Source: Thelephora terrestris (lineage: Eukaryota; Basidiomycota; Agaricomycetes; Thelephorales; Thelephoraceae). Taken from it: a stretch of 64,000 bases of DNA. The stretch is taken from the NCBI GenBank assembly GCA_015956445.1, contig WIUZ02000008.1, positions 496,001 to 560,000 on the forward strand, given 5' to 3'. The notes under the pieces were generated by a model. It was not told the origin of the DNA and ran no database searches. It worked only from the letters and a program-made list of their open reading frames with translations. Positions 31,429 to 55,646 of this stretch are shown piece by piece (positions within the stretch are counted from its first letter, which is position 1; the number at the start of each line of letters is the position of its first letter). The position numbers and the translations under genes were made by a program.

Positions 31429-32334
31429 TAACCCGTCGTCCTATGCGACGCCTCCGATCGAGAACGCGGTTCCCGTGCCGACTCCGGGTCCGGCTTCTAC
31501 GTTGGCCGCTTCCGACAAGGAGAACTGTGGGCGCTGCGTCTTGGAGCCAATCCATCAGTTGGTGAAGATCGAGGATGAGGTCATGGAGGTGGACCGAGCC
31601 GAAGATGCTCCGAGGGTCGCCGAGGTACGTCCGGTGACTAAGGGGCAACGATGCAAACGCTCTCGACGCCGTCCTGCTCATCGTATGACCGCGTCGGCTA
31701 ATCCTTACCCTCGACCAGTCGAGTCAGATGGTGACCAATCTGGTCGAGGTGAGGAGCGAGGATTCCGATATCGGGTCCACCGTCCTTACCGACAGGTCGA
31801 GTCCGAGATCCAACTCCGACACCAGCTTCGCCTCGCAAGACAGGATCCCACCCAGGGGTCCGACGAGGGAGACGGAGGGTCACTCGCCGACTACGTCGAT
31901 AGTACTGTCGAGCAGTCACCCGGTGATGGAGATGTGGGATCAGGTGTTCCAGAGTTCGGTGACATCTGGGAGGCTGATCGGTCCGCTCGAAGGAGTCTCT
32001 TCCTATCGGCTTGAACTAGTTGTTCAGCTGAGTGCTGAGGACGGTGACGCCATGTTCGGGGAGGTCCTTGCGAGGAGGGGCCAGCACTACGATCTCCGGG
32101 ATGGAAGGGTGATGACCATGAGGCCTGCCGAAGATAGAGTTGACTTCTGATGGACTTGGATAGCACTGTATATAGCTCGTTGTGGCTTCGCTGGGAATAG
32201 TACGCGCGTGTGTGTGTTTCGAATGATTGGTGTGAAGGATAAGGAGTGTGAAGCATTCGAAACATAAGAAGTGGTAAGAAGAATTCGAAGAAAGAGCGTG
32301 TTATAAAAAGTTTAAAAATACCATGTTCCTGACA
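31429..32334 (+). mobile_element. A unit 0 (diverged, 5'-truncated) with gene remnant
   Basis: Open frames 31364-32014 and 31728-32150 resemble the 3' half of the A gene in later units: Pro/Ser-rich segment, then a region like VRLVAQLTERVEG. The 3' flank resembles theirs and ends CTGACA (32329-32334). The 5' part is lost to the CACTG-type element ending at 31428. No catalytic motif is seen. Confidence 0.45.
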
Positions 32335-33090
32335 CACAGCAGGAGTGCCGAGCCTCTATCCGACAAATCCCTATCGTTGTCTGAGGGCAGATGTAAGAGC
32401 CCGAGGATGGCGCCTCAAACTGGTGCTTGATCAAGAGAGCGACGAGGAACTCCTTTTTGTAAGCGCGTTCGCCGATTCTTGATACAAGGCCGAGAGAGAG
32501 AGGAGAGCGAACGTGTTCAAAGAGGTACTCGATAAGCTCTTCAGTGGCCTACAGCAAATACACCGATGCTGCAAGGAGAAGAGGACTTCCCAAGATATCA
32601 AAGATAGGGAATCCTCAGCTACTCTACTGGTACTATATAGAAGAGTGGCCGGGACAGAGATAATCCTATCTAATAATAACTCGGAGCAAAGAAGGGCCGA
32701 GAGTAAGCCAGAACAGTAAGCGGCCCGGAGTATAGAATAGAAATGATAAAGGAATGACTAATGGGTTAGGGTTTGTGAGAGAACAAGAAAGGGGTCATGA
32801 CGTCATGTGGGAAAGGAATGACAAAGAACAATATCACATGCGAAGACTGACCAATAGAGGGACGACGCATCAGCTCGTCTGATCGGGACAACAAAAGACC
32901 GAGTGGGGTTTGAATGTCGAGGCGAATGTATGGGGAGTCTGGGCCGGTGAAACGATGGACCGATCCAATGGCGAATAGGGCGCGAGCGCTATCGATGGTC
33001 GGATAAAGCGTAGCGCGAACCGGCCGCTGGATCCATCAAACTCCCTTCCTCCCAAATCAGCACTCCCACCAACCAACTACTCATCCTACC

Positions 33091-35709: not shown

Positions 35710-35962
35710 CAACTAGGGTCTGTACGCCTTGGTCTTCGTCCATAGAGTCCGTGCAGATTCAACTCCGTCGGCTAGTCGTCTCGTGTCTTCATCGTATATG
35801 CGCCCGCTGTAATATCATCTGCGTCTTTGTCTGTGTTCCTTGATAACGTGTGAGTCGTGATAAGAGAAACGGATGAGATAGAAAGGGGTATAGGTAAGGA
35901 AAGTGAGCGAAAGTTGGGTGTGAAAATGGTTCAAAAAGAAGTTAAAATTCAGCACGCTGACA

Positions 35963-39552: not shown

Positions 39553-40340
39553 GTAAGAATATCGACCTGAAGTCGGATCTACCCAACATTCACAACTTCC
39601 CAAGACGTCATGATCCAAACCCTCACTCATTTCCGTCATCACCTGACCCAGCTCCGTCTGCACCAAGTCCGAACCAAACCGGTCCTGTAACTTTGACACC
39701 TCTAACTTCAACTTCATTCGAATCTGTCGTGACTTGTTCGACGGGCGACACCACTGTCCAATACGAGTCATCGGACTCACTCGACTCTTCTTCGTCGACC
39801 TCTCCACCATCTGAGAGACTGGGGCAGGACTCCAAGGAGGGGATAGAGGGAGAGGAACTCCCTGATCTTGCCGAGACCGGAGGGAAGACTGGGAGCTGAT
39901 GAGCAGCCCCACACCATTCACAAGCGCAGTGTTGTCAGACAGCCGCCTGGAAAGGTTTCCAATGTTCGTTACAGAAATGGGTAAACTCTTCATTGTACGC
40001 TCCGAACATGACGTACATGAGATCCATTCGCTTCTCCAACCTAGCAATCCTCTCTTCTCGTTTGTGCTCTTGATGGTCCAGAAGGGGCTTGTAATGACCA
40101 GCCTGATCCCAGACATAATTGGGAGCGTTGTGTTCCAGAAGAAATTGTTGAGCCATCTCATTGTCTTGAGCGATGGCGGCCGGGGTGTCGTACAAATGTT
40201 GTTCAACATCGTAGGGGGTAGAGGCCTCATAAGGAGAGGCAGAAACAAAGGGGGTAGCGGCAGCGTTGAGAGATATAGTAGTGAAGATGGTTTGTAAGAG
40301 GGGAAGTTGTTGTGTGGATTGTGGGAGTGGAAAAGAGACG
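39553..40340 (-). pseudogene. B-family gene, copy 4 (degraded)
   Basis: Read leftward: SLNAAATPFVSASPYEASTPYDVEQHLYD, NAPNYVWDQAGHYKP, ERIARLEKRMDLMYV, then a Ser/Pro/Glu-rich part and a second frame with DHDVLGSCECWVDPTSGRYSYC, where A unit 2 cuts in. The usual ATG position reads ATA here. Diverged from copies 1-3. A stop follows FQAAV. Confidence 0.55.
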
Positions 40341-40545
40341 ATGAGAGGAAAAGACTCAGAAACCTCCTGAGTTATATACGCATTCAAGACAGTGGAACAC
40401 CCAAACGGGTAAGACAATAACCCATTGTTCACTGACAACCAAAAGGGGATAAACGAACCCTCAGCCCAGATTGCGATCCCATCACTCCTCTACTACCACC
40501 TTGAAACCTGAGAAATCCCCATCGATCATGAGAAATCCCCCTCAG

Positions 40546-43478
40546 TGTCAGGGCCACTCTTCGCCCTTCAGGTACCAGTGCTGTTGGTGAGTCGCAACTC
40601 CAACCAACAAGAAACAATGGGGCAAAGGGGGAACGACTTCCCTATATCCACCCAAAGTCTACGTGGTCCAAAACGCGATGGACGAGCGTTCTCCGGTAGG
40701 TTGTCCGAATTCACAGCAGGAGTGCTGAGCCTCTATCCGACAAATTCCTATCGTCGTCTGAGGGCAGATATAAGAGCCCAAGGATGGCGCCTCAAACTGG
40801 TGCTTGATCAAGAGAGCGGCGAGGAACTCCTTTTCGTAAGCGCGTTCGCCAATTCTTGACACAAGGCCGAGAGAGAGAGAGGAGAGCGAACATGTTCAGA
40901 GAGTTACTCGATAAGCTCTTCAGTGGCCTACAGCAAATACGCTGATGCTGCAAGGAGAAGAGGACTTTCCGAGATATCAAAGATAGGAAATCCTCAGCTA
41001 CTCTACTGGTACCTATATAGGAGAGTGGCCGGGACAGAGATAACCCTATCTAATAATAACTCGGAGCAAAGAAGGGCCGAGAGTAAGCCAGAACAGTAAG
41101 CGGCGCGGAACATAGAATAGAAATGATAAAAGAATGACTAATGGGTCAGGGTTCGTGAGAGAATGAGAAAGGGGTCATGATGTCGTGTGGGAAGGAATGA
41201 CCAGGAATAATATCACATGCGAAGACTGACCAATAGAGGGACGACGCGTCAGCTCGTTCGATCGGAACAACAAAAGACCGAGTGGGACTTGAATGTCGAG
41301 GTTGAATGTATGAGGAGTCTGGACCGGTGAAAAGATGGACCGATCCAATGGCGAATAGGGCGCGAGCGCTGTCGATGGTCGGATAAAGCGTAGCGCGAAC
41401 TGGCCATTGGATCCATCAAACTCCCTTCTTCCTAAACCAACAATCCCACCAACCAGCTACTCATCTACCATGCCCATGATCTCCGATCGTATCTTCCGTG
41501 CCGAGAACAGCACTGCTACCATCGAGTCAGCGGATCCGCGCTCCGTGCAGAACAAGAGTTACTTCCTGCCGAATGCCAATGTGGCGTATCCCAGCTATCG
41601 AGAGGTGCGACGTCACGTGTCGCCGATTACTGGCAACAACTGACATCGCATTCGCAGATCTTCGCAGCGGCCGATAAGGTGGACGCCCGACAACTGGAGG
41701 CAACGATCGCCAAGCCTCCCAACTACCTGACCATGGACGACGAGTTGTGGTTCTGCAACTTGATTGACCACAAGCTTCAAGAGTCGATGCGCGGGGTGAT
41801 GTTTAATACTGAACTGCGCATGCCGTGGGAGACACCTGTGGCGTCCGCCTTGTGGGGTCTTCTGCGGATGGGGATTTACGACCTAGGAAATGGAGAAGGA
41901 AGGTGGCCTGGAGCTACTCGATCCCAACACTACACAGCTGCCGTTGGTCACCGTCTCTGGTTCCTATTGAGGACGGAACAGAAAGCGGTGAGTCAATCTG
42001 TGCATCCCGCTTGTGGGATAATACTGATTGGCTTTGTAGAACGAACGGTTGAAGCACGAGGTGAAGGAAGCAAAGGACGACGCTCGTAGGATGTACTCGG
42101 AGGCGTTGGACACCAAGAAGACACTTCTCCTAATGAACGACACGCTTCGTGTGACGTTCGAGAGCGAGATGCTGGCGATGAGGGAGGAACACAATCGGTT
42201 GGTCGAGTCATTGAAGGAATGAGACGACACCATTCAGCGGGACCTGATTGAGGTCGACCGACGGCTCAACCGTCATCGAAGGGCTCTGAATGAGCTCGAC
42301 ACCAAGGTTGGTGCGACTTCTCCTGGTCTTTAACCAAGAGAGCTCATGCCACTTCTAGGTCGACACGCTGGATGACGCCTTGCCGTTACTGGGCGCTCGA
42401 GTTGAATCCATGAGTGAGCGGCTGTGTCACTGTCGAACTTGTTCGGTGGCTGCAGTCCGCGACGAGTCCGGGGACGAGTCGATTCCAGACAGGATGGCTT
42501 CCCCTATAGGTTTGGGATGCTGGTTGACATACTTGTCCTGTCTGCTGACATTTCGCTAGCTTCCAATGGTTCGTACCGTACGCCGGCGCGTACCGATGGC
42601 GGGGAGGAGGTTGTCCGTGAGACGTCTGAGGAGACAGCGGTCAACCCAGTTAGCAGTTCTCCCGAGTTGGAGTACACGGGGGAGAACAAGGTGGCCGTTC
42701 CGGTTCTGCCTCCATCGGTCTCTCCGGTGTGTGGACAGTGTTCCATTTGTGCCCGTCGATGGGTTCCTTACCCTGGTGCTCATCGTCCAGCCCACCGCAT
42801 GCGTCCCAGTAATCCCGACGCCGTCCACCAGGGTGGAGACATCGAGTCCACCGCCCTATTCCGATGCGACGATGTTGCAGTGTCGTCTGGACCGCAGCGA
42901 GCTAATCCCGGTGGAGTCCGTCGACGTGAATGGATTAACCAGCCTTACGCTCTTGTCGGTCCAGCGTGCAGCGGAGGCCGTACGCCTGGTGGCTCAACTG
43001 ACCGAGAGAGTGGAGGGTTGGTCAGTCCAGAGGACTCAGGATCAGATTATGGTCGATTCAGCAAGGAACCGCCTTCGCGCCGAAGTACAGCTGGCCGTAG
43101 CTCATCGTCTGGAGAAGGCTCGGGTCGTCGAGATGGTCGATGAGGAAGTCGTTGAGAGTGCCTCGGAGGGGACGGAGGAGGAGGTTGCCAGTGCTGAGGA
43201 GTACTGGCAAACCAGGTCTTGACGACTAGGGTTGATGCTCTTTTTAGTCCTTGTCCATAGAGTCGGTGCGGACTCAACTCCGTTGGCTATTCGTCTTGTG
43301 TCTTCGTCGCGGGTTCGCCTGCTGTAATATCATCTGTGTCTTTGTCTGTGTTTCTTGATGACGTGTGAGTCGTGATAAGGGGAATTGATAAGATAAGAAA
43401 GGGGTATAGGTAAGGAAAGTGAGTGAAAGTTGGGTGTGAAAATGGTTCAAAAAGAGGGTAAAATTCAGCACGCTGACA
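40546..43478 (+). mobile_element. A unit 3, complete, 2933 bp, TSD CTCAG
   Basis: Ends TGTCAG...CTGACA are 6-bp perfect inverted repeats with TG/CA tips. Flanks are CTCAG at 40541-40545 and 43479-43483. It lies between genes B and C of BC copy 4. It holds one multi-exon gene and long 5' and 3' non-coding parts. No integrase, transposase or RT was seen. Tips and 5-bp duplication are those of retrovirus-like integrases (LTR elements or Ginger-like transposons), but no internal LTR pair is present. Confidence 0.75.
41470..43222 (+). pseudogene. A-family gene, copy 3 (unknown protein)
   Basis: ATG 41470 (MPMISDRIFRAENSTATIES). Exon 1 41470-41604, intron 41605-41657, exon 2 from 41658 (IFAAADKVDARQLEATIAKP; PWETPVASALWGLLRMGIYD; RTEQKA), a 52-nt intron near 41987-42038, exon 3 (NERLKHEVKEAKDDARRMYS), an intron ending CTTCTAG near 42358, then VDTLDDALPLLGARVESMSE. 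The 3' frame VQRAAEAVRLVAQLTERVEG ends EEYWQTRS at 43220-43222. The Leu/Arg/Glu pattern predicts coiled coil. TGA at 42220-42222 (CGA in copy 1) breaks it. Role unknown. It is spliced, so the unit was not recently copied through spliced RNA. Confidence 0.6.
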
Positions 43479-43895
43479 CTCAGTCTTCTATTACTACCCT
43501 GAAACCTGAGAAATCCCCATCATGCTTCTATTGCATCCTTTACTCCAAGAAATCCCCGTCGATCGTGAGAAATCCCCATTGTCCTGTACTGACTCCTAGC
43601 TTTATTGTTCTCCCATTTGTAATTACTGTTGAACATCCTAAGTCCCTTTTCCTTGCTCCATTTACCCTGCCCTAAACTACGCACAGACCATGTTGACTCG
43701 TGTTTGATTAATTGTATGATTACTAAGCATGTAGAGGATTGGGTATATAAGGAAGAGCATTCACTCCTTTCTTTTCCCCATTCTCAATCTCTTCTGTACT
43801 CCCCTACCAACTACTCAATAAACAAAGTAAGCTAAGGAATACTCCTTACGTCTTACTCTCATTAACTCATTCAGCAGGAATACTCCTGCCAGTGT

Positions 43896-44471
43896 ATGTT
43901 CAGTGCACCAAACCCTTTCTCCACTACAGAACCCCTTTCTCATCCTAACGTCGCAGACGTTTGTAGGTCTATCTGGGAGTATAAACTCATCAGAAGTCTA
44001 CAGATTAACAGATCCAACGGACTATTAACCCACTTCCCTTACTACAGACCGTTCTCCACCCTTGATTCAGGATCCACTACCATCCCATTCTTATTAGGAG
44101 GGGATCATCAATTCCTGTGGTCATCCGCCGTCACAGACAGCACTCTAGTCACTGTCTATTTCAGTGTTAGCCCCGCCTTCTACTTCCCTACTCCTCGAAT
44201 CCTCCTAACTACCAACGTTCATACTTCTTGTCCCGCTCTTGTCGTTCTCTGGTGGGACATCCCAACTGATTTACCTTGGGGATTATTAGAATATCTCACA
44301 GAGTTTGAACGACTCAGTGATCAAGACTTTGATCCGTTCATTCAAGAACTCTATCGCTTTTGCGAAGACTACAACTCTCCCATTCACCCCTATCAATTGG
44401 AAGCTCCCTTAGCCCTCGACCTTCCCCCCATCCTCCCTCCTACTCCCGGAACTCCCTTTCTCAAACCTTGA
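43896..44471 (+). CDS. C-family protein, copy 4
   Basis: 191 aa from ATG 43896, MFSAPNPFSTTEPLSHPNVA. Conserved blocks of the family are present: SIWEYKLIRSLQINRSNGLL, THFPYYRPFSTLD, PFLLGGDHQFLW, VYFSVSPAFYFPTPRILLTT, VLWWDIPTDL and SDQDFDPFIQELYRFCEDYN. No known domain is recognised and there are no membrane helices. Upstream are TATATAA (about 43746) and a leader intron candidate ending CAG just before the start. The gene is intact although the partner B copy is dead. It is more diverged from copies 1 and 2 than those are from each other, with blocks retained, which suggests protein-level constraint. Confidence 0.65.
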   Translation: MFSAPNPFSTTEPLSHPNVADVCRSIWEYKLIRSLQINRSNGLLTHFPYYRPFSTLDSGSTTIPFLLGGDHQFLWSSAVTDSTLVTVYFSVSPAFYFPTPRILLTTNVHTSCPALVVLWWDIPTDLPWGLLEYLTEFERLSDQDFDPFIQELYRFCEDYNSPIHPYQLEAPLALDLPPILPPTPGTPFLKP

Positions 44472-44539
44472 CCCGACACCCCCTATCCCGCTAATCCTCT
44501 AGCGCCCCACAGAAAGCAAGTAGGCCCACAACCCTGACA

Positions 44540-45931
44540 GTTTTTTCACTTAAGATAATCGCTTGAGACAAACACGAACGCTGATTGGCTGCCTGCCACA
44601 AACTCGGCATCCTATTGGCTGATGAGGGGCTTTATCACTCATTGGCTCTCAGCTTTGCTTCAAATCCCGCTTCAGAAACCGCTGCCCGTCTCACCTGAAG
44701 CATTGTCTACTTCTCTTCCTTCTTCCACCCTTTTGTGCAGCCGGGATAGCTTTAGACATGTAGTCTTTTGCTCCAATCTCCTCCCATATATATCACACCC
44801 TATATTTGTTCACGGATTCCTTGGCACGCCATTGTTAAACTTTGCGAGCGTCGTTTCACCTGCGGGTTGACAGTCCTAGGATCCTAACCTCCATCAACAG
44901 TGCCAGGGGCCAAACAATATCAGGAAGATTTTTTTTATTGCCCACCTGTTCTTGGCTAAAATAAAAAAAGAAATATACATTTAACACCTCCTTTGTCAAA
45001 CCGCAGGGCTGGGCACTGTAGGTGTCCAACTCAAACACCCTTCCTTCAGGTTTATTGATGTACCATGGATACAGAACCATTTCTTCTCACCACTGTGTGC
45101 ATGTCTTACCGGTACCGTGAGTTAGTAGTGACCCATGCAACCTCACACAAGTGTCAGATATATTGCACTCAAATGTAGCTCCTCCAAGCAAGCGGCAGCA
45201 AACGGAAGATGGGAGTTTGGCTCAGTTTTACATAGACCCTTGCATCAACCAACTCTTTGATAATTGATTAATTTGGCCGGATCCCACTGCAAGCACAGAT
45301 TTTGGGCTAGTATGGACTACTGCAGATTGAGAATTTGAGATCTGGCCGTGAAGGCATAACAAGGGTTGCCAGTTGCTACTACGCCAGCGTGGCACCAATA
45401 TTGTGTTTTCCCATGCACGTTCGAGATCATTCATAGCCTCACTGTCAAACACATGCGTGCGTGTATCAGCAGGACCCCTGATAATTGGCGGAGAGGTCCG
45501 ACACCGCACTGCAGCAGCGTGGAGGCAACGAAGTTATGCGAGGCCTTTGAAAGGATCCCCCCCCTTTTCGCCCTTTTCTATAACCATAGCGCCAACAAGT
45601 GGCATTGCCCACGACCCCCTTTGCCTTCCCAAGTGCGTGTACTTACGAGGGGGGTTGAAGTTGCCCAAGTCAATGATTTAATGTTTGAGAGGAGCAGTAC
45701 GTGTATTGTCACTCCACACACATAACACAGACCAGATATGTTTATACTCTTGCTGCGGCGTCGAAAGGAGTTTCCCTGACCCCCTGGTGAATCTTCATTA
45801 CTAACTAAGGCGGATGGAAGGAACAATACGCAGGGGATGGTATGATAACAGGGGAGTCCTGTGAGAGATAGCGTGCAATGCGAGAAAGTGAAGTTGAAGA
45901 CGGGAGAAGGGGTGTTGTGGAAGCGGAGGAG
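44540..45931. other. Sequence between two BC elements, no gene recognised
   Basis: Short open stretches (45366-45725 +, 45578-45937 -) lack recognisable features. This is probably host or older element sequence into which BC copy 1 inserted at AGGAG. Confidence 0.4.
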
Positions 45932-46061
45932 TGTCACGAACGCGTGACATAGTAGCCAAGATCACACAAGTAATTCAAGACATTGGTCTTATTCGTAAAA
46001 ATAATAGTACAAAGGCGGCTAATAAAAACTACAAAATCAGACAAGAACAAACGGGTCCACG

Positions 46062-46938
46062 TCACAAGCGCAGTCCTGAGCAAACGGGCAACAATGAGCG
46101 AAGTGGAGGGTTATGCACACTCTGAGGGCAGTATGAGTACACCCGTGTTACCGGATCCTGCCAACACTCCCTACACCCCAACACATCATGATACAAACTA
46201 TCATGCATCTCCCGCTTCACATCCGACAAGGCTGCGCTCACTAAGGCAAACCCATAACGGTCTTGGAGACCCGCCACTTCCACCTTCAACTTCATCCGAA
46301 CCTGACGTGACTTGTCGGAGGGACGACAACGTTGACCAGAACGAGTCATTGGACTCTTGCGGTTCTTCCTCTTCTGGGACCTCTCCACCATCTGGCGAAC
46401 TGGGGCAGGACTCCAGGGAGGGGATGGAGGGAGAGGAACGCCCTGATCCTGGCGGCGGCGAAGGGATGACTGGGGACTTGCAAGGGGGGTCGGTGCAATA
46501 AGCCCCGCGACACTGGTGTCCGAAATATCGGAAGAGAGATGCCTGGAAAGGTCCCCAATGTTCCAAAGCAAAGTGAGAGAAGTCATCATTCAAACTATTC
46601 ATGATGACGTACATGAGGTCCACACGCTTCTCCAGCTTTGCAATCCTATCCTCCCTCTCCCTCTCCATGGCGTCCAACAAAAGGACGGCTCCAGGGTGAC
46701 CAGCTTGAACCCGAGGCCTAGAAAGCCTGGGGTCTTCGTACCCAGCTTGTTCCCAGAACTCGACGGGGGCATTATGGGCGGTGAGGAAGTCGACGGCGAC
46801 TTGGTTGTCGTGGGCGATGTTGGCAGGGGAGTCATACAAATGTTGCTCCACGTCGTAGGGAGTGTCCGTCTCGAAGGACGGAGTAAAGGGGGTGGCGGCA
46901 GCACTGAGCACGGCGTTGTTGGCAACGAAGGTAGACAT
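46062..46938 (-). CDS. B-family protein, copy 1
   Basis: ATG at 46938 reading left: MSTFVANNAVLSAAATPFTP, DTPYDVEQHLYDSPANIAHD, FLTAHNAPVEFWEQAGYEDP, EREDRIAKLEKRVDLMYVIM (short coiled coil), NDDFSHFALEHWGPFQASLF, then a Pro/Ser/Glu-rich linker. After about 46330 the sensible frame switches to SDVKREMHDSLYHDVLGC and CRECWQDPVTRVYSYCP, ending at 46062. An intron of about 50 nt with a GTCACG donor is a possible explanation. The Cys pairs suggest a small metal-binding tail. No known family. The reading may end instead at 46201 if no splice occurs. Confidence 0.5.
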
Positions 46939-47583
46939 AGTAGTAACGGATATTTGAGAGAGGAGGGTAGTACTGGTGATTGTGGGAGGAGAAAAGAGGC
47001 GATGGGAGGAAAAGACCAATAATCTCCTGGATTATATACGGCTGACTCAATAAGAAACCAAAAGGGGGAGACAAAGAATCATTAACCATTCAAAGCCCGA
47101 TTAGGATAAACGAACCCTTAGCCCCAATCGCGATCCCATCAAATCCAGAGAAATCCCCATCGATCAAGAGAAATCCCCAGCATGCTTCTATTACCACCAT
47201 GAAACGGGAGAAATCCCCATCACGCTTCTATTGCTACCATGAAACACGAGAAATCCCCACCAGTCTCCTAAATGACTCATCCGCTATTGTTTCCCTATTC
47301 CATACTCAGTATCGGTTGTCCTAAGTCCCACTTCTCTGACTCATCCATCCTACCCTAAAGTACGCACAGACCATGTTGACCCCTGTTTGGTTCGTTGTAG
47401 AATTATGACTCCTGTAGAGAACTGGGTATATAAGGAAGAGCGTTCGCTCCTTTCTTTTCCCCATTCTCAATCTCTTCTGTACTCCTCTACCCACAATCTG
47501 AATATAAAAAGTAAGCCTGAGGAATTCTCCTCACGTTCTACTCCTTCTAACTCATTCTAAAGCAGGAATTGTCCTGCCAGTGT
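46939..47583. promoter_or_regulatory. Shared divergent promoter with GAGAAATCCCC repeats (BC copy 1)
   Basis: A TATATAA-type box on the minus strand near 47030-47037 faces gene B, and GGTATATAAGG near 47428 faces gene C. Between them four GAGAAATCCCC motifs occur at about 47147-47255, in units that also repeat CATGAAAC and CTTCTATT. A pyrimidine-rich leader and an intron candidate (GTAAGC near 47511 to CAG near 47571) precede the C start. Confidence 0.6.
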
Positions 47584-48207
47584 ATGTTCAGTGCGCCCAA
47601 CCCTTTCCCCTCCACTAGCCCAGTCACTCGCCCCAACATCCCCGACGCCAGGAGATCTATCTGGGAGTATAAACTCATCAGAAGTCTCCAAGTAAACCGT
47701 ACAAACGGTTTATTAACTCATTTCCCTTACTACCGCCCCTTCGCTGCCCTCGACGCAGGAGTCACCACTCCTCCTTTCCTTCTAGGCACCGACCATCAGT
47801 TCCTTTGGAACTCAGACCTCACTGAGAGTGTCCTAGCAACTGTTTATTTCAGTGTTAGCCCTGCCTTTTACTTCCCTTCTCCCAAAGTCCATCTAACCAC
47901 CAACGTCCACACTCACTGCCCTGCTCTCATCGTCCTTTGGTGGGATATCCCGACTGAACTACCTTACTCGATTATAGAATACCTCGTTCACTTCGAACAA
48001 CTCAGCGGTCAAGACTTTGAACCGTTCATTCAGCAGCTAAATCGATTCTGCCAGGACTATAATTCGCCCGTCCATCCTTATCAGACAGAGTCACCACTCT
48101 CGCTTGATATTCCCCCTCCTCTCGTCTCTACACCCGGAACCCCCTTCCGAACTCGACCCGACACTCCACACCCATCCGCTAATCCTCTAGCGCCCCACAA
48201 ACAGTAA
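47584..48207 (+). CDS. C-family protein, copy 1
   Basis: 207 aa from ATG 47584: MFSAPNPFPSTSPVTRPNIP, SIWEYKLIRSLQVNRTNGLL, THFPYYRPFAALDAGVTTPP, FLLGTDHQFLWNSDLTESVL, VYFSVSPAFYFPSPKVHLTT, LIVLWWDIPTELPYSIIEYL and QDFEPFIQQLNRFCQDYNSP, ending NPLAPHKQ. The C-terminal coding sequence runs to within 20 bp of the element tip. No signal peptide, membrane helix or known catalytic motif. The family is not recognised. Intact, and close to copy 2. Confidence 0.7.
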   Translation: MFSAPNPFPSTSPVTRPNIPDARRSIWEYKLIRSLQVNRTNGLLTHFPYYRPFAALDAGVTTPPFLLGTDHQFLWNSDLTESVLATVYFSVSPAFYFPSPKVHLTTNVHTHCPALIVLWWDIPTELPYSIIEYLVHFEQLSGQDFEPFIQQLNRFCQDYNSPVHPYQTESPLSLDIPPPLVSTPGTPFRTRPDTPHPSANPLAPHKQ

Positions 48208-48595
48208 GCAGGCCCACAACCCTGACAAGGAGTGGGGGAAACGCGTTGTCGGACCCCAGGATTATCATTATTTATTTTACGATTTAACGCACAATTTATA
48301 CTCAACAGACTGGTCAATGGATTATTTAAATGATTTAAATATTGTTTAATCCAGATAAGATTAGATAACAGAAATCTAATTATAATCCATTATAGATAAG
48401 ATAAGATAAGATAAGGACCCTGAAGATTAGATCAAGAGATCAGATAGCCATGGAAAACCATGGAATATCATGGAATCTCCCAGAACATGCTGGAACATGC
48501 TTGTCAGGGTTGTGGGCCTGCTTACTGTTTGTGGGACACTAGAGGATTAGCAGATGGGTGAGGGGTGTCGGGTCGAGTTTTAACAGGAGTTCCGG

Positions 48596-49886
48596 TGACC
48601 TGCCTCCGTTTCGCTGGCCGTCCGACTCGTACTATACCCCTAGCAACTCCAGCACCCTCCCCAGCTATCCACCCATACGTCGCGACATAGCACGAAGCCC
48701 CCTCCTCCGACACGACCCCTTGTCGACCATCGCCAGTCTCCCGATCGTCTCACGACCTCCCGCTCCTCTTGACTTCGACAAAATCCTCTAAGACCACGCT
48801 CCGAGTCCGGCCTCCCCGATCCCACGTGCCACCCGATCACTTCCGTTCTCCCACCTGACTTGACTCGCCTCGCCCCCCTTGTTCGTCATTGTTTGGATTC
48901 CCCCGCATCGGTCCGCCGTCCCAACTCCGGAATACGTGCCCCCCGCCCTCTTGTTGCATGTCGTCGCCGTCTCGACTGTCTCGCCATGTTCCCCGCCTCC
49001 CGCCTGTTCCACTCCGATCCCGCCTTGACTTCTCGGTTCGATCCTTCATTTCATTGTCCCGTAGTTTCCCACGATGCCTTCATTCCTCCCCCCACTCCTC
49101 CCGCCAGCTTGTTCGTCCTTCGCGCATTCTTGTTCTCCCCTCTGTTCCGCTCTTCGTTTTTGTATGACCTCCCTACGCCCTTCACGAACTTCACGATTCC
49201 CGCTCTCTCGCAATGTTTGCCTTGTTATGTTTTGTTCTCCCCTCTTCATGTTCTACCTCCAACCACTCTCTCTACCTACTATATAAGTGTCAGTAGACAG
49301 TCCTGGTTCGAATAACGAAGTGCAGTTCCCCCTTTCCCTCTGAAGTTCAACTCAGCCTTGCACTGTCTAAAGCCTCCAACACTCTTCGTTCCTCGCGACC
49401 AAGTTCTCTTTGAGCGCAGTGCTCGAAGAACCCTCTAGCTTTTCTCTTTCCTAGTCTCGACTTCTCTCGACGTGAAGCGCAGTGCTTCTCGACCTTCTCT
49501 ACTCGTCTCGCGAGCGCAGTGCTCTACCCCAGTCTTGAGCGCAGTGCTCAGCTCTTAGCTCTTCGTGGCGAACGCAGTGTTCACCACTTCTACTAGTTTC
49601 TTCTCGTCTCAGGTATTCTCTCGTTCTCTCGTCTCGCGCTGATAGCTTCTTTCTTAGCCACCTATCCCGCCGCGACCCTCTTCGTCGCGACGCTTGTCTA
49701 TTGAGACTCTACTCTATCGCCACCACTTCCTATTCCCTCCCTACTTCTCCCTACTTCTCCCTACTTCTCCCTACTTCTCCCTACTTCTCCCTACTTCTCC
49801 CTACTCCTCTCTACCTCTACCTGCTTTACCCTACCGACATCTGCACAACCGGTCACCCACACCCTTCAGCTCCCTCTTCTTGCTAC
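48596..49886. mobile_element. Unclassified ~1.3-kb insertion with TATA box and GCAGT-loop hairpins
   Basis: It splits the C gene of BC copy 3. The host sequence around the site (GTTCCGGGTG in copy 2) appears in altered form on both sides (GTTCCGGTG left, GTTCCCGGGCG right), consistent with a target duplication of up to about 10 bp. The inside has a TATATAAG box near 49280, five hairpin motifs at 49412-49582, pyrimidine-rich sequence, and a CCTACTTCTC tandem repeat at about 49740-49800. No coding domain. It looks like an LTR or other non-coding element. Limits are approximate. Confidence 0.4.
49740..49805. repeat. Tandem 10-mer CCTACTTCTC, about six copies
   Basis: Perfect head-to-tail copies followed by degenerate ones. 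Open frames here are repeat artefacts. Confidence 0.85.
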
Positions 49887-49939
49887 GTGTTCCCGGGCGT
49901 AGAAATGAGAGGAGGAGGGATATCCAGGGAGAGTGGTGA

Positions 49940-50446
49940 CTCTGTTCAATAAGGGTGAACCGCTGAGTGGTAGTCTTGACAGAACTGGTTCAGTTGCTGA
50001 ACAAAAGGCTCGAAGTCTTGGTCGCTAAGACGTTCGAAATTGACGAGATACTCTATAACCGAATAAGGTAATTCAGCTGGTATTTCCCACCAAAGGACGA
50101 TAATGGCAGGGGAGTGGGTGTGGATATTAGTAGTAAGATGCACGCGTGGACTTGGAAAGTAGAAGGCGGGACTTATACTGAAGTAGACAGTCGCTAGGAC
50201 GCTCTCAGTAAGATCCGAGTTCCAAAGGAACTGATGATCTGCTCCTAGGAGGAAAGGGGGAGTGGTGACTCCGGCGTCGAGAGCTGCAAAGGGTCGATAG
50301 TAAGGGAAATGGGTGAGTAAACCGGCAGTTCGGTTTACTTGGAGACTTCTGATAAGTTTATACTCCCAGATAGATCTCCTGGCGTCAGGGACGATCGGAC
50401 GTTGGACTGGACTGGTGGAGGAAAAGGGGTTTGGGGCACTGAACAT
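49940..50446 (-). pseudogene. C-family gene, copy 3 (interrupted)
   Basis: ATG 50446 (MFSAPNPFSSTSPVQRPIVP) through SIWEYKLIRSLQVNRTAGLL to DFEPFVQQLNQFCQDYHSAV HPY, then TGA where copies 1 and 2 have Gln. Beyond it the homologous tail (TESPLSLDIPPP-like) continues until the 1.3-kb insertion, and the last codons lie near 48540-48595. Dead by nonsense and insertion. Confidence 0.65.
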
Positions 50447-50563
50447 ACACTGGCAGGAGAATTCCTGCTAGAATGAGTCAGAAGTAGTAAGGTGTGAGGA
50501 GAATTCCTCAGCTTACTTTGTTTATTCAAGTTACGAGTGGAGGTGTCAGGGTTGTGGGCCTGC

Positions 50564-51187
50564 TTACTGTTTGTGGGGCGCTAGAGGATTAACGTGTGGG
50601 TGTGGAGTGTCGGGTCGGGTTCGGAAGGGGGTTCCGGGTGTAGAAATGAGAGGAGGAGGGATGTCAAGCGAGAGTGGTGACTCCGACTGATAAGGATGGA
50701 CCGGCGAGTGGTAGTCTTGACAGAATTGATTTAACTGTTGCACAAATGGTTCGAAGTCTTGGTCGCTAAGACGTTCGAAGTTGACAAGATACTCTATAAC
50801 CGAATAAGGTAGTTCAGTTGGTATTTCCCACCAAAGAACGATGATAGCAGGGGAGTGAGTATGAACGTTAGTAGTGAGGTGGATGCGTGGATTGGGAAAA
50901 TAAAAGGCCGGACTTATACTGAAGTAGACTGTCGCTAAGACACTCTCAGTGAAGTCAGAGTTCCAAAGGAACTGATGATCGGCACCTAATAGGAAAGGAG
51001 GAGTGACGACTCCGGCGTCGAGAGCTGCAAAGGGTCGATAGTAAGGGAAGTGGGTGAGTAGACCGGTGGTTCGGTTTACTTGGAGACTTCTGATGAGTTT
51101 ATACTCCCAGATAGACCTCCTGGCGTCAGGGATACTGGGTCGCTGAACTGGGCTTGTAGAAGGGAAAGGATTGGGGGTGCTGAACAT
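50564..51187 (-). CDS. C-family protein, copy 2
   Basis: 207 aa, ATG at 51187 reading left: MFSTPNPFPSTSPVQRPSIP, SIWEYKLIRSLQVNRTTGLL, FLLGADHQFLWNSDFTESVL, VYFSISPAFYFPNPRIHLTT, VLWWEIPTELPYSVIEYLVN and SDQDFEPFVQQLNQFCQDYH, ending NPLAPHKQ. Same length as copy 1 and free of stops. Amino-acid differences are mostly conservative (V/I, D/E, S/N). It has the TATATAAGG promoter on the minus strand near 51295. Function unknown. Confidence 0.7.
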   Translation of the reverse strand: MFSTPNPFPSTSPVQRPSIPDARRSIWEYKLIRSLQVNRTTGLLTHFPYYRPFAALDAGVVTPPFLLGADHQFLWNSDFTESVLATVYFSISPAFYFPNPRIHLTTNVHTHSPAIIVLWWEIPTELPYSVIEYLVNFERLSDQDFEPFVQQLNQFCQDYHSPVHPYQSESPLSLDIPPPLISTPGTPFRTRPDTPHPHVNPLAPHKQ

Positions 51188-51461
51188 ACACTGGCAGGAG
51201 AATTCCTCAGCTTACTTTGTTTATTCAGGTTGTGGGTAGAGGAGTACAGAAGAGATTGAGAATGGGGAAAAGAAAGGAGCGAACGCTCTTCCTTATATAC
51301 CCAGTTCTCTACAGGAGTCATAATTCTACAACGAACCAAACAGGGGTCAACATGGTCTGTGCGTACTTTAGGGTAGGATGGATGAGTCAGAAGAGTGGGA
51401 CTTAGGACGACCGATATGGAGTACGGAATAGGGAGACAATAGCGAATGAGTCATTTAGGAG

Positions 51462-51612
51462 ACTAGTGGGGATTTCTCGTGTTTCGTGGTAGCAATAGAA
51501 GTGTGATGGGGATTTCTTCTGATCGATGGGGATTTCTCCCGTTTCATGGTGGTAATAGAAGCATGCTGGGGATTTCTCTTGATCAATGGGGATTTCCCTG
51601 GGTTTGATGGGA
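51462..51612. promoter_or_regulatory. GGGGATTTCTC repeat array in divergent promoter (BC copy 2)
   Basis: Five GGGGATTTCYN-type motifs (GTGGGGATTTCTCGTG, TGGGGATTTCTTCT, TGGGGATTTCTCCC, TGGGGATTTCTCTT, TGGGGATTTCCCTG) lie midway between the TATA boxes of C (minus) and B (plus, GGAGATTATTGG zone). The same array occurs in copies 1, 3 and 4. Confidence 0.6.
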
Positions 51613-51807
51613 TCGCGATTGGGGCTAAGGGTTCGTTTATCCTAATCGGTTTTTGAATGGTCAATGATTCCTTTGTCTTCCTCTTTTGGTTTCTTATTGA
51701 GTTGTCCGTATTTAACTCAGGAGATTATTGGACTTTTCCTTCCATCGCCTCTGTTCTCCTCCCACAATCACCAGTACCACTCTCCTCTCCAAACATCCGT
51801 TACTACT

Positions 51808-52711
51808 ATGTCTGCCTTCGTTGCCAACAACGCCGTGCTCAGTGCTGCCGCCGCCCCCTTTACTCCGTCCTTCGAGACGGATGCTCCCTACGACGTGGAG
51901 CAACACTTATATGACTCCCCTGCCAACATCGCTCACAACAACCAAGTCGCCATCAACTTTCTCACCGCCCACAATGCTCCCGCCGAGTTCTGGGAGCAAG
52001 CTGGGTACGAAGACCCCAGGCTTTCCAGGCCTCAGGTTCAAGCTGGTCACCCTGGAGCCGTCCTTTTGTTGGACACCATGGAGAGGGAGAGGGAGGATAG
52101 GATTGCGAAGCTGGAGAAGCGGGTGGACCTCATGTACGTCATCATGAATAGTTTGAATGATGACTTCTCTCACTTTGCTTTGGAACATTGGGGACCTTTC
52201 CAGGCATCTCTCTTCCGACATTTCGGACATCAATGTCACGGCGCCTACTGCACCGATCCCCCTCCTAAGTCCCCAGTCGTCCCTTCGCCACCGCCAGGAT
52301 CGGGGTGTTCCTCTCCCTCCCTCCCCTCCCTGGAGTCCTGCCCCTGCTCGTCAGATGGTGGAGAGGTCCCTGAAGAAGAAGACACGCAAGAGTCCGATGA
52401 CGCGTTCTGGTCAGTGTTGTCATCCCTCCGACAAGTCACGTCAGGTTCGAATGAAGCTGAAGGTGGAAGTAGCGACTCTTCAGGATCGCTATGGGTTTGC
52501 GTTGGTGAGCGACGCATTGACGGACGTGAGACAGGAGATGCATGAGAGCTTGTTTCATGATGTGTTGGGGTGCAAGGAGTGTTGGCAAGATCCGGTAACT
52601 TGGGTGTACTCTTATTGTCCTCAGAGCGTTCATAACCCTCACCATTTCGCCCATCGTTGCCCGTTTCCTCAGGACTGTCCTTGTGACGTAGACCCGTTCG
52701 TTCTTGTTTAG
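51808..52711 (+). CDS. B-family protein, copy 2
   Basis: ATG 51808: MSAFVANNAVLSAAAAPFTP, DAPYDVEQHLYDSPANIAHN, HNAPAEFWEQAGYEDPRLSR, EREDRIAKLEKRVDLMYVIM, NDDFSHFALEHWGPFQASLF and HQCHGAYCTDPP, then an acidic Ser/Pro linker. The unspliced frame stops at 52545. A second frame carries the conserved tail LTDVRQEMHESLFHDVLGCK, ECWQDP, SYCPQSVHNPHHFAHRC and CPCDVDPFVLV to 52711. A short intron near 52430-52485 would join them. The tail (CxxC, then C-x12-C-x5-C-x-C with several His) suggests metal binding. Best-preserved B copy in the window. Confidence 0.55.
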
Positions 52712-52816
52712 GTTTATAATATCTGTTTGCTGCCTTTGTACTTTTATTACCGCGAATAAGACCAATGTCTTGAATTACTTGTGTGATCTTGGCTACTATG
52801 TCACGCGTTCGTGACA

Positions 52817-53379
52817 GGAGGAGTACAGAAGAGATTGAGAATGGGGAAAAGAAAGAGCGAATGCTCTTCCTTATATACCCGATCCTCTACAGGAGTCATT
52901 ATCTTACAACAAGCCAAACAGGGCCAACATGGTCTGTGCGTAGTTTAGGGCAGGGTAACTGAGTCAGAGAAGCGGGACTTCTAGCGCGACGAATGAATAT
53001 GAAATAAGGGGACAATAACGAATGAGTCATTAGGAGTACAATGGGGATTTCTCACGTTTCATGGTAGTAATAGAAGCGTGGCAGGGATTTCCTATGATCG
53101 GTGGGGATTTCTCCTGTTTCCCGGTAGTAATAGAAGTGTGGCAGGGATTTCTCATGATCGGTGGGGATTTCCCAGGGTTTGATGGGATCGCGATTGGGGT
53201 TGAGGGTTTGTTTTCCCTAATTGGGATTTCAATGAGTGATGGTGTTGTTGTTCTCCCTTTTTGGCTCCTCATTGATTTGGCCGTATATATAATTCAGAGG
53301 GTTGTTGGTCTTTTCCTCCCATCGTCTCTTTTCCCTTCCCACAATCCACTACTCGCCACCTAAAACATCTGCTACTACT
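52817..53379. promoter_or_regulatory. Remaining half of the divergent promoter of BC copy 3
   Basis: It holds the minus-strand C promoter (TATATAAGG on minus near 52873) cut from its gene by BC copy 2, five GGGATTTC-type repeats at about 53042-53175, and the plus-strand TATATATAA box (about 53284) of the following B gene. Confidence 0.55.
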
Positions 53380-54284
53380 ATGTCTGCCTTCGTCGCCAAC
53401 AACGCCGCACTCAACGCCGCCGCCACCCCCTTTACTCCATCCTTTGAGATGGATGCTCCCTACAACGTGGAGCAACATCTATATGACTCCCCTGCCAACA
53501 TTGCCCACGACAACCGGGTTGCCATTGACTTCCTTACCGCTCACAATGCCCCCGCCGAGTTCTGGGAACAGGCTGGGTACGAAGACCCCCGGGTTTCTGG
53601 GCCTCGAGTTCAAGCCGGTCATCCTGGAGCCGTCCTTTTGCTGGACGCCATGGAAAGGGAGAGGGAGGATAGGATTGCGAAACTGGAGAAGCGTGTGGAC
53701 CTCATGTACGTCATCGTGAATAGTCTGAATGATGACTTTTCTCACTTTGCTCTGGAACATTGGGGACCTTTCCAGGCATCTCTCTTCCGATATTTCGGAC
53801 ACCAGTGTCACGGGGCTTATTGCACCGACCCCCCTTGCAAGTCCCCAGTCATCCCTTTGCCGCCGCCAGGATCAGGGCGTTCCTCTCCCTCTATCCCCTC
53901 CTTGGAGTCCTGCCCCAGTTCGCCAGATGGTGGAGAGGTCCCAGAGGAAGAAGAACCGCAAGAATCCGATGACTCGTTCTGGTCAACATTGTCGTCCCTC
54001 CGACAAGTCACGTCAAGTTCGGATGAAGTTGAAAGTGGAGGTGGCGGGTCTCCAAGACCGGTATGGGTTCGCATTAGTGAGCGCAGCCTTGTCGGACGTA
54101 AAGCGAGAGATGCATGAGAGTTTGTATCATGACGTATTGGGGTGTTGAGAGTGCTGGGTTGATCCGGTGACTCAAGTATATTCGTATTGCCCTCAAAGTG
54201 TACATAATCCTCATCACTTTGCTCACCGTTGTCCGTTTGCTCAGGATTGTGCTTGTGACGTGGATCCGTTTGTTCTTGTTTGAG
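53380..54284 (+). pseudogene. B-family gene, copy 3
   Basis: ATG 53380 (MSAFVANNAALNAAATPFTP) with all N-terminal blocks intact. In the tail frame the codon after VLGC is TGA (54146-54148; Lys in copy 2, Arg in copy 1), after which ECWVDPVTQVYSYCPQSVHN and CACDVDPFVLV continue to about 54284. The first frame alone ends at 54117. Truncated tail by nonsense, otherwise well kept. Confidence 0.55.
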
Positions 54285-54388
54285 TCTGTAGTTTTTACTG
54301 GTCGCCTTTGTACTTTTATTACTTTGAATGAGACCAATGTCTTTGATTATCTGTGTGATCTTGGTCACTATGTCACGTGTTCGTGACA

Positions 54389-55646
54389 ATGCTGTAACAT
54401 GCTGGAAAGTGCTGGAACATTCTAGAAGGTGACGGAATGTCACAAATGTGATGATTTGTCACACAAAGAACAAGACGGAAACTAATGGAACATGGCGGAA
54501 TCTTACGGAATACTGTGGAAGGTGCTGGAATGTTCTAGAACATTCTTGTGTAAAATAGTATATATAGACCTCAACCCCACTTCTAAGAGAAGGACAGGTA
54601 CCTACTGCTCAGGAAAAAGCACAGTTTGCTCTATCCTCACATCAGCTGAGCATCCTTTTGCTCCGTGTCTCTTTTTCCCCCCACTTTACATCTACCCCCT
54701 CTCTCTCTACATCTACCCTCTAAAGTATCTACCTCAATTCCCTTAGGACTGATTGGTTGAGTGATTTGAGCAATCACATACCATATTTTAGCCCTACCCT
54801 CTGTGAGAAGAAGTTCTAAGTCAGAAGAACTGAATAAGGCAGATAACCCCACCTCAGAGAAGTTTATTATCTGAAGATTTTTGAAGACCTATCGGTTAGA
54901 CGTACAAGACGTCATCTGCAGCAAAGTTTAGGGTATCAGTTATACCCTCCCAGTTTTACGACATATCGTGTCACCTTTACAACATATCTAGCACAGCCCC
55001 AGGTGTAAGTGTACACCTTCCCTTTTAGGTCTAGTCACACGACACAGCCTCAACACAGCCTTAGGCATAGCCCTAAGCACAGCCCTAAGCACAGCATCAA
55101 AGCACAGCATCAAAGCACAGCCTTAGGAATTCAGCCTCAAACACACCCTTTGAGCACCCCCCTCTTTCCCCCTCCCCTTTGGTCTACCCCAGTAGATCAT
55201 CCCCTCCACTCTTGATCTCCCCTTAGATCAGGAACTCCATTCCCATCAAATCACCACCAAACCCCCACACACCAGATAAGTGTCTAATCAAGGAACAGGA
55301 ACAACTGAGTGATATAGTACGTCTGATTCCCTTGGAATAATACTGAAGGACACACTCACAGAGTAGATCCCTCAGCGAACTCATCAGGTCCAAGAGCCGG
55401 AAAGAGGAACCCCGCTCACCCTGTGGAGTTGTTAGTCACGTTCATAGACTACTCAACCAGCCTGCTTAGCTTCTATACACTTAGTCTCTAAGCGAACCAA
55501 CTGGGTCTAGTTATCTTCTGTATAGAACATAACACTACACCACCCACGAGCACGACAGCGTGTGTAGTTGAGACCAGGGTAGACGTGCGATCGCAGAACG
55601 TTCACGAGGATTGTCACGTTGGGTAGACGAAACAAGGGGGAATTAG
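54389..55646. other. Non-coding sequence right of BC copy 3, with short repeats
   Basis: GGAACATNCTGGAA-like words, TATATATAG near 54560, pyrimidine-rich stretch, and CACAGCMTCAA/CACAGCCCTAAG tandem motifs at about 55040-55125. No gene recognised. See the possible LTR entry. Confidence 0.5.

What the first reader, a model, noticed from the sequence alone, without database searches (positions are those of the whole stretch)
45932..54388. A two-gene mobile element (BC) with TGTCA/TGACA tips and 5-bp target duplications, seen in three exact copies
Seen: copies at 45932-48227, 50544-52816 and 48502-54388 have identical tip architecture and perfect 5-bp flanking duplications AGGAG, GGAGG and ATGCT. 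Each has divergent genes B and C and nothing else. Known: TG...CA tips with 5-bp duplications are made by retrovirus-type integrases (LTR retroelements; Ginger-like DNA transposons give 4-5 bp). Inference: either non-autonomous integrase-mobilised cassettes, or solo LTRs that themselves carry two genes. I know of no described element with this layout.
Basis: partly seen in the sequence, partly recalled or inferred. Interest (0 to 1): 0.9.

Follow-up and report, generated by a model that had tools for sequence, protein, structure and literature searches.

The report
Mobile two-gene LTR-like units, Thelephora genome
In a soil fungus, a 2.3-kb mobile unit that looks like a lone retrotransposon end-repeat, but carries two conserved protein genes of unknown function, is spread through the genome in many copies, and another family in the same genome shows that such gene-bearing repeats can flank a real retrotransposon.

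Summary
The window lies in a 40.6-Mb genome, Thelephora terrestris by its protein records. The 2.3-kb unit has fixed tips (TGTCACGAACGCGTGACA.. / ..CCCTGACA). 43 of 50 units examined have perfect 5-bp duplications (24 of 30 fetched by similarity, 19 of 20 from tip lists; mispaired control 0 of 380). Left tips number 280 and right tips 319 (up to 3 mismatches). Copies are 83-99% alike, not exact. Both genes are under selection: dN/dS 0.06 for C, 0.11 for B's first part. B has a conserved 70-nt optional intron and two overlapping, constrained frames. Of 200 right tips listed (of 251 exact), none shows a recurrent interior beyond four repeated pairs. So BC was not seen as the end-repeat of a larger element. 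A second family, A, gives a precedent: a chromodomain Ty3/Gypsy element (8 RT copies) with 3.3-kb LTRs, 99.9-100% identical in the four pairs compared, with a codon-phased antisense gene inside the LTR, similar tips, a 5-bp duplication, similar target bias, and 416 left tips. Best reading: BC is a gene-bearing LTR seen here only as solo LTRs. A free-standing cassette moved in trans is not excluded.

The parts
45927..48232 (+). BC copy 1 (45932-48227) with its AGGAG target duplication on both sides
   Evidence: Direct reading
46201..46938 (-). Gene B, ORF1 frame, copy 1 (ATG at 46936-46938)
   Evidence: Purifying selection in this frame: dN/dS 0.108 before the intron, over 30 copies
46065..46589 (-). 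Gene B, second frame (ORF2), copy 1; its 3' end differs from the other copies by a gap
   Evidence: ORF2 gapped in L001
46939..47583 (.). Region between the start codons of B and C, with a TATA-like stretch on each side
   Evidence: Sequence reading; promoter role inferred
47584..48207 (+). Gene C, copy 1, 207 aa plus stop
   Evidence: dN/dS 0.063 over 30 copies, wrong frames 2.3-2.7
50539..52821 (-). BC copy 2 (50544-52816) with GGAGG duplications, inserted in BC copy 3
50564..51187 (-). Gene C, copy 2
51808..52545 (+). Gene B, ORF1 frame, copy 2
52134..52203 (+). Optional 70-nt intron of gene B (GTACGT..CCAG); removal would join ORF1 to ORF2
   Evidence: Found at exactly 70 nt in 28 of 30 copies; gene models P0039, P0041 and P0044 read as if spliced at this point
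52157..52711 (+). Gene B, ORF2 frame, copy 2
   Evidence: dN/dS 0.087 in the part not shared with ORF1
48497..54393 (-). BC copy 3 (48502-54388) with ATGCT duplications; pieces 48502-48595, 49893-50543 and about 52822-54388
48596..49892 (.). 1.3-kb insert in BC copy 3, not identified
39574..44539 (+). Older diverged BC copy (65-74% identity in its main pieces), split by the A'-type unit
40541..43483 (-). A'-type unit (40546-43478) with CTCAG duplications, antisense overlapping ORFs, same right tip GGCCCTGACA
31429..32334 (-). Left 0.9 kb of an A LTR (92.6% to the LTR of the A-Gypsy at C4)

Best explanation
BC is the long terminal repeat of a Ty3/Gypsy-type LTR retrotransposon, seen in this genome only as solo LTRs. 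The LTR itself carries two protein genes. B lies antisense in the left half and C lies sense in the right half, with a shared promoter region between them. A retroviral-type integrase inserted the full element with a 5-bp stagger. Recombination between the two long identical LTRs then removed the interior, leaving one LTR that usually still holds intact B and C. B makes two proteins from one locus: with its 70-nt intron kept, ORF1; with it spliced out, exon 1 joined to an overlapping second frame. I infer that B and C are accessory proteins acting for the element, since selection on them is strong. SHOWN: mobility, tips, duplications, copy number, selection on both genes, conservation of the intron sequence, no recognised RT or integrase in the unit, and an LTR retrotransposon with a gene-bearing LTR (A) in the same genome. 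INFERRED: that BC is an LTR, loss of the interior by recombination, the promoter, the splicing, and the function of B and C.
For: 43 of 50 units have perfect 5-bp duplications, mispaired control 0 of 380. The target site has a symmetric base bias: T depleted at position 1 (0.12), A depleted at position 5 (0.10), over 200 sites; family A is alike at these two positions (0.10 and 0.10, 98 sites). Tips resemble those of A: TGTCACGAAC/TGTCAGGAAC and CCCTGACA/CCCTGACA. A is an LTR retrotransposon: protease, RT, RNase H, integrase, Tf2-1-like SH3 and chromodomain matches in the 1322-aa frame of the one copy scanned; LTR pairs 99.9-100% identical in the four pairs compared, with matching outer duplications in all four; 12 nt near the interior start are the exact reverse complement of a stretch of the LTR, a self-priming pattern. 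A's LTR carries an antisense gene with codon-phased variation (8 copies). A has 416 left tips at up to 2 mismatches against 8 RT copies and 8 purine-tract/LTR junctions. Selection on BC genes: C 0.063, B before its intron 0.108, ORF2 unique part 0.087.
Against: No BC-flanked interior was found. Of 251 exact right tips, 200 were listed; three downstream 17-mers occur twice and one more pair is nearly alike, and these pairs were not followed up. At A's rate (8 per about 416 tips) about 4 would be expected, a Poisson chance of about 2% (own estimate). A's purine tract joined to the BC tip finds only A's eight 3' LTRs. BC lineages are diverse (mean pairwise synonymous difference 0.42 in C), yet most duplications are intact, so many lineages moved recently and all must have lost their full-length forms. 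Only three single A units had their flanks checked: two show the duplication, L049 does not. A's target sites differ from BC's at other positions (T at position 2: 0.44 against 0.32; C at position 7: 0.09 against 0.26). Profile comparison does not show that A's LTR gene is a homologue of B (probability 3% or less).
Confidence: 0.63

Rival explanations
1. BC is a free-standing LTR-like cassette that moves as the 2.3-kb unit itself. An integrase made elsewhere, for example by the A chromovirus, joins its ends; B and C serve the cassette.
For: The 43 perfectly duplicated units of 50 are single units; no recurrent interior beyond four repeated pairs after 200 of 251 right tips; many diverged lineages with mostly intact genes and intact duplications; tips and target bias resemble those of A.
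Against: I know of no way that makes a linear, LTR-ended copy of a solo LTR (recalled knowledge). A suggests that long gene-bearing LTRs end up solo without such a way: 416 left tips against 8 RT copies, and the four LTR pairs compared are young.
Confidence: 0.2
2. BC is a DNA transposon (Ginger-like or of a new kind) whose transposase is an unrecognised B or C protein or is supplied in trans.
For: The unit moves alone with 5-bp duplications and TG..CA tips; B and C are strongly conserved; their folds are unknown.
Against: No terminal inverted repeat beyond 5-7 bp; no Pfam, NCBIfam or solved-structure match to a nuclease or transposase in B or C; the tips resemble the LTR tips of A.
Confidence: 0.1
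3. BC is a host gene pair family spread by segmental duplication, with tips and duplications by chance.
For: Genes are conserved and some appear as hypothetical proteins of the host.
Against: Precise tips and duplications at different sites, mispaired control 0 of 380; a BC tip sits where an RT gene is cut at C6:242313.
Confidence: 0.01

Closest known systems
Solo LTRs of Ty3/Gypsy chromoviruses (A-Gypsy of this genome; Tf1/sushi-like, class names recalled)
   Same: TG..CA tips, 5-bp duplication, similar target bias at positions 1 and 5, similar terminal bases, gene-bearing LTR, far more tips than RT copies
   Different: BC is 2.3 kb, carries two divergent genes rather than an antisense gene region alone, and no interior was found
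LTR retrotransposons with additional ORFs (bdelloid rotifer elements, PMC5408684, passages read; plant Retand elements, PMC11963269, search listing only)
   Same: Extra genes on LTR elements
   Different: In the bdelloid passages the extra genes are ORF3s listed beside gag and pol, and the LTRs are 159-551 bp; here the genes are inside the LTR and survive in solo units
Retroviral genes in or overlapping LTRs (MMTV sag, spumavirus bel/bet, lentiviral nef; recalled, no paper read)
   Same: Coding sequence lying in an LTR
   Different: Vertebrate retroviruses, one gene or part of one; here two complete divergent genes, one with a dual-frame intron
Ginger DNA transposons (recalled)
   Same: Integrase-type chemistry, 4-5 bp duplications
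   Different: Ginger has longer terminal inverted repeats and its own transposase; neither was found in BC

Membership tests
Ty3/Gypsy LTR retrotransposon (solo LTR of) | TG..CA ends and 4-6 bp target duplication | tested here: met
   43 of 50 units perfect 5-bp
Ty3/Gypsy LTR retrotransposon (solo LTR of) | Occurs as a direct pair flanking gag-pol | tested here: not met
   No recurrent interior beyond four repeated pairs after 200 listed right tips of 251; no RT between direct pairs among 100 of 280 and 100 of 319 tips and 74 of 120 RT matches. A full element absent from this genome, or among the tips not listed, cannot be seen
Ty3/Gypsy LTR retrotransposon (solo LTR of) | Purine tract before, primer site after the LTR | tested here: inconclusive
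   A-type purine tract plus BC tip: none; generic purine tracts: 8 sites, about what chance gives by own estimate; one has the same bases as a stretch in gene C of copy 2, another differs by one base
Ty3/Gypsy chromovirus: family A of this genome | RT, RNase H, integrase, chromodomain between identical LTRs with target duplication | tested here: met
   Domains in the one copy scanned (C1); LTR pairs C4, C1, C12, C56 and their outer duplications; the other four copies known only from RT, purine-tract junction and, for C11, two LTR places
Ginger or other DDE DNA transposon | Encodes a DDE transposase or integrase core | tested here: not met
   No rve or transposase match in B or C; folds uncertain
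Ginger or other DDE DNA transposon | Long terminal inverted repeats | tested here: not met
   Only TGTCACG against TGTCAGG
Non-autonomous cassette mobilised by A integrase | A integrase joins BC ends | not testable with these tools
   Only tip and target similarity

The most novel reading that the evidence does not exclude
BC is a new kind of mobile unit: a stand-alone, gene-bearing, LTR-shaped cassette that propagates as the 2.3-kb unit itself, using an integrase supplied by a chromovirus, while its own two conserved proteins (one with two overlapping reading frames chosen by splicing) ensure its spread.
Probability: 0.2. Interest if true: 0.92.

Novelty: new variant of a known kind. Interest (0 to 1): 0.74.

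Why it matters
LTRs are usually thought of as regulatory DNA, and solo LTRs as dead remains. Here two families (A, and on the best reading BC) place conserved protein genes inside the LTR, so the genes can survive loss of the interior and stay in the genome in many copies. That raises a testable question: do solo LTRs act as protein donors for their full-length relatives, or as parasites in their own right? It also affects fungal gene catalogues, where such genes appear as host 'hypothetical proteins'.

Tried and rejected
C4:68508-82450 and C1:546843-561776 first looked like full BC elements with RT and integrase inside. They are BC units into which an A-Gypsy inserted near the right end, with its own duplications. 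C12:3266329-3272562 (two BC units 1.55 kb apart, same strand) was tested as a short BC-interior-BC element; its outer flanks do not match (ACTTG against GACGG), so it was rejected. C23:2460333 and 2463650, 3.3 kb apart on one strand, each have their own duplication. The open antisense frame over gene B is not supported as coding: dN/dS 1.09, stops in 11 of 30 copies. AlphaFold models were poor (C pLDDT 42.9, B 53.2); Foldseek for B gave one match at E 8.5, and C was not searched. Homology of B with A's LTR gene was tested and not supported. A plasmid-collection search with BC found nothing, as expected.

Limits. Only the best 40 of 401 BC candidates and 40 of 635 A candidates were scored in DNA searches. 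Pattern listings are cut at 100 places. In one search I set 74 of the 120 RT matches against the tip lists, those on contigs that the lists cover; three RT matches near a BC tip in element-like geometry (C13:26938, C7:914153, C3:1007630) were not examined further, and whether the A-Gypsy at C11 lies inside a BC was not checked. The repeated 17-mer pairs were not fetched. L022 and L030 look like two copies of one locus, so the 30 loci are not fully independent. Sister strains and the metagenome contigs could not be read. C4's first 1.5 kb of A interior aligns at only 58-59% to the other four, whose mutual identity is 95-97%; not explained.
Full report
WHERE IT IS. The window is C59:496001-560000 of a genome of 40.64 Mb in 60 contigs. 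Protein records found with gene C and gene B are named Thelephora terrestris, on contigs whose lengths equal those of this assembly (2,721,652 = C23, 1,800,789 = C59). So the host is most likely this ectomycorrhizal basidiomycete. A genome of this species was reported in PMC7550596; the passages I read do not mention such elements.

THE OBSERVATION. The three copies in the window have the stated tips and perfect 5-bp duplications. They are 85-87% identical, not exact. The third is split by the second and by a 1.3-kb insert. Genome-wide, the left tip occurs 280 times and the right tip 319 times at up to 3 mismatches, the reversed-pattern controls 0 times. Of 30 loci taken by similarity, 24 have perfect duplications. 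The other six: L012 matches 4 of 5; L030 reads CCGAT against CCGTA; L029 is the outer part of a nested case whose outer flanks do match (GTTTC); L014, L020 and L026 show none. Of 20 further units chosen from the tip lists, 19 are perfect and one matches 4 of 5; the mispaired control is 0 of 380. At C6:242313 a BC left tip sits where an RT gene is cut, with matches to profile positions 1-124 before and 122-203 after it, which is what an insertion into that gene would give (inference).

THE INTEGRASE SIGNATURE. Over 200 right tips the first five bases show a mirrored bias: T is rare at position 1 (0.12) and A at position 5 (0.10); G is commonest at position 1 (0.39) and C at position 5 (0.42). 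This symmetry independently fits a 5-bp stagger. Family A is alike at these positions (T 0.10 and A 0.10 in 98 sites; 2 of the 100 listed were dropped because they are followed by the A interior), but differs at others, such as T at position 2 (0.44 against 0.32).

THE GENES. In 30 aligned copies (pairwise identity 0.83-0.99, mean 0.88) variation falls on third codon positions. Gene C: dN/dS 0.063 (pS 0.417, pN 0.037), with stops in 4 of 30; wrong frames give 2.3 and 2.7 with stops in 30 of 30. Gene B, ORF1 before the intron: 0.108, stop in 1 of 30. In the 70-nt intron region the ORF1 frame still shows 0.030, so this stretch is coding when retained. The second frame shows 0.138 in the 3' part of the overlap and 0.087 in its own unique part, with a stop in 1 of 30 and gaps in 2. 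With L001 as reference that part gave 0.354 and stops in 19 of 30; L001 has a gap there, so L002 was used instead. ORF1's last 39 codons are not constrained (2.0), nor are ORF2's first 16 (1.8). In the middle of the overlap both frames are weakly constrained (0.25 and 0.56) and total diversity is low (0.03-0.06 against about 0.10-0.16 in gene C), as expected if both frames are read. The donor GTACGT and a 70-nt spacing to the acceptor are found in 28 of 30 copies; the other two lack the exact motif searched. Three gene models, P0039, P0041 and P0044, read as if spliced at that point, while others read through. Splicing itself is inferred, not measured.

RELATIVES OF THE PROTEINS. C has 9 matches and B 37, named ones all T. 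terrestris, the rest without an organism name, most of them from JGI. There is no Pfam match above cut-off, no NCBIfam match and no convincing solved-structure match (best E 0.32 and 0.12). B is predicted to have a long helix at residues 90-139 in a low-confidence model. ORF2 ends in a Cys/His-rich stretch, by reading only.

FAMILY A: THE PRECEDENT. Two apparent full-length BC elements proved to be BC units carrying an inserted element. That element, A, has LTRs of 3307 bp in C4, 99.97% identical, with tips TGTCAGGAAC..CCCTGACA and duplication ATCAC. Its 1322-aa frame in C1 carries protease, RT, RNase H, integrase, Tf2-1-like SH3 and chromodomain matches. The interior starts GAGTAACAAAACTA; twelve of these bases (GTAACAAAACTA) are the exact reverse complement of a stretch in the LTR downstream of a TATA-like site, which fits self-priming (inference). 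Eight RT copies and eight purine-tract/LTR junctions exist. In the four elements with both LTRs compared, the pairs are 99.9-100% identical and the outer duplications match. Between five elements the LTRs are 95-97% alike. The interior diverges similarly in the pieces compared, except that C4's first 1.5 kb does not align well. The A left tip occurs 416 times at up to 2 mismatches, so most A copies are probably solo; of three single A units with flanks seen, two show a 5-bp duplication and one (L049) does not. The A LTR varies in codon phase, switching phase as a multi-exon gene would, over the antisense open frames (8 copies); dN/dS was not computed for it. Its protein has 49 matches, named ones again only from T. 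terrestris. So LTRs that carry a gene are real in this genome.

IS BC AN LTR TOO? For: the tips, duplication size, target bias and gene-bearing layout resemble A. Against: no BC-flanked interior was found. Of 251 exact right tips, 200 were listed; three downstream 17-mers occur twice each and one further pair is nearly alike, otherwise nothing recurs. In the tip lists (100 of 280 left, 100 of 319 right) no RT lies between two direct BC copies, with 74 of 120 RT matches considered. At A's rate about 4 full elements would be expected among 200 tips, so the absence has a chance of about 2% if BC behaved like A now (own estimate). If BC full-length elements stopped inserting somewhat earlier, rapid conversion to solo LTRs would explain it. 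Intact duplications suggest about 1% neutral change since insertion if the three units without any duplication are dropped (24 of 27), about 2% if they are kept (24 of 30), while the lineages differ by far more at synonymous sites. So many separate lineages kept functional genes and moved recently. This is what keeps the cassette reading alive.

NESTING. BC units are hit by A, A' and other BC units, many of them in the right half, but the flanks of L073 and L070 read as gene B and the left tip of another BC. I did not measure whether this exceeds chance.

LITERATURE. Searches for Thelephora transposons, genes in LTRs, ORFs within LTRs and solo LTRs with ORFs (listings only) showed no title or abstract describing protein genes inside fungal LTRs; subscription papers are mostly not held. 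Extra ORFs in bdelloid LTR elements are ORF3s beside gag and pol, and their LTRs are 159-551 bp (PMC5408684, passages read). Retroviral LTR genes are recalled, not read.

VERDICT. The finding is real and unusual. Most likely it is a gene-bearing LTR seen here only as solo LTRs, a new variant of a known kind. The more novel reading, a self-standing LTR-shaped gene cassette, is not excluded.

Noticed in passing
L031:3089-6395 and C4:70589-82281: A chromodomain Ty3/Gypsy element with 3.3-kb LTRs that carry an antisense gene region with overlapping frames and codon-phased variation; 416 left tips against 8 RT copies.
   Followed up: partly
window 40546-43478; related stretches 32826-33899, 34777-35962, 35963-37277: A third family (A') with the same right tip as A and a 5-bp duplication CTCAG, carrying antisense overlapping ORFs; several pieces of it lie in 32.8-43.5 kb.
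   Followed up: partly
C4:70589, C1:546891, C2:874648, C6:235959, C2:1346224, window 50544: A and BC units repeatedly lie inside BC units, often in the right half (gene C and right tip). Possible target preference, not tested against chance.
   Followed up: no
C13:553169 and C13:558319: Two BC right tips on opposite strands, 5 kb apart, followed by the same 17 bases: an inverted duplication or a shared flank; not fetched.
   Followed up: no
window 48596-49892: 1.3-kb insert with tandem CTCCCTACTT units inside BC copy 3; not matched elsewhere in the window; nature unknown.
   Followed up: no
window 33900-34775 and 37302-38196: Two long palindromic stretches (each matches its own reverse complement over 0.9 kb at 94-99%).
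   Followed up: no
P0062: A host gene model that fuses B-like and A-like parts, probably an annotation across a nested insertion.
   Followed up: no
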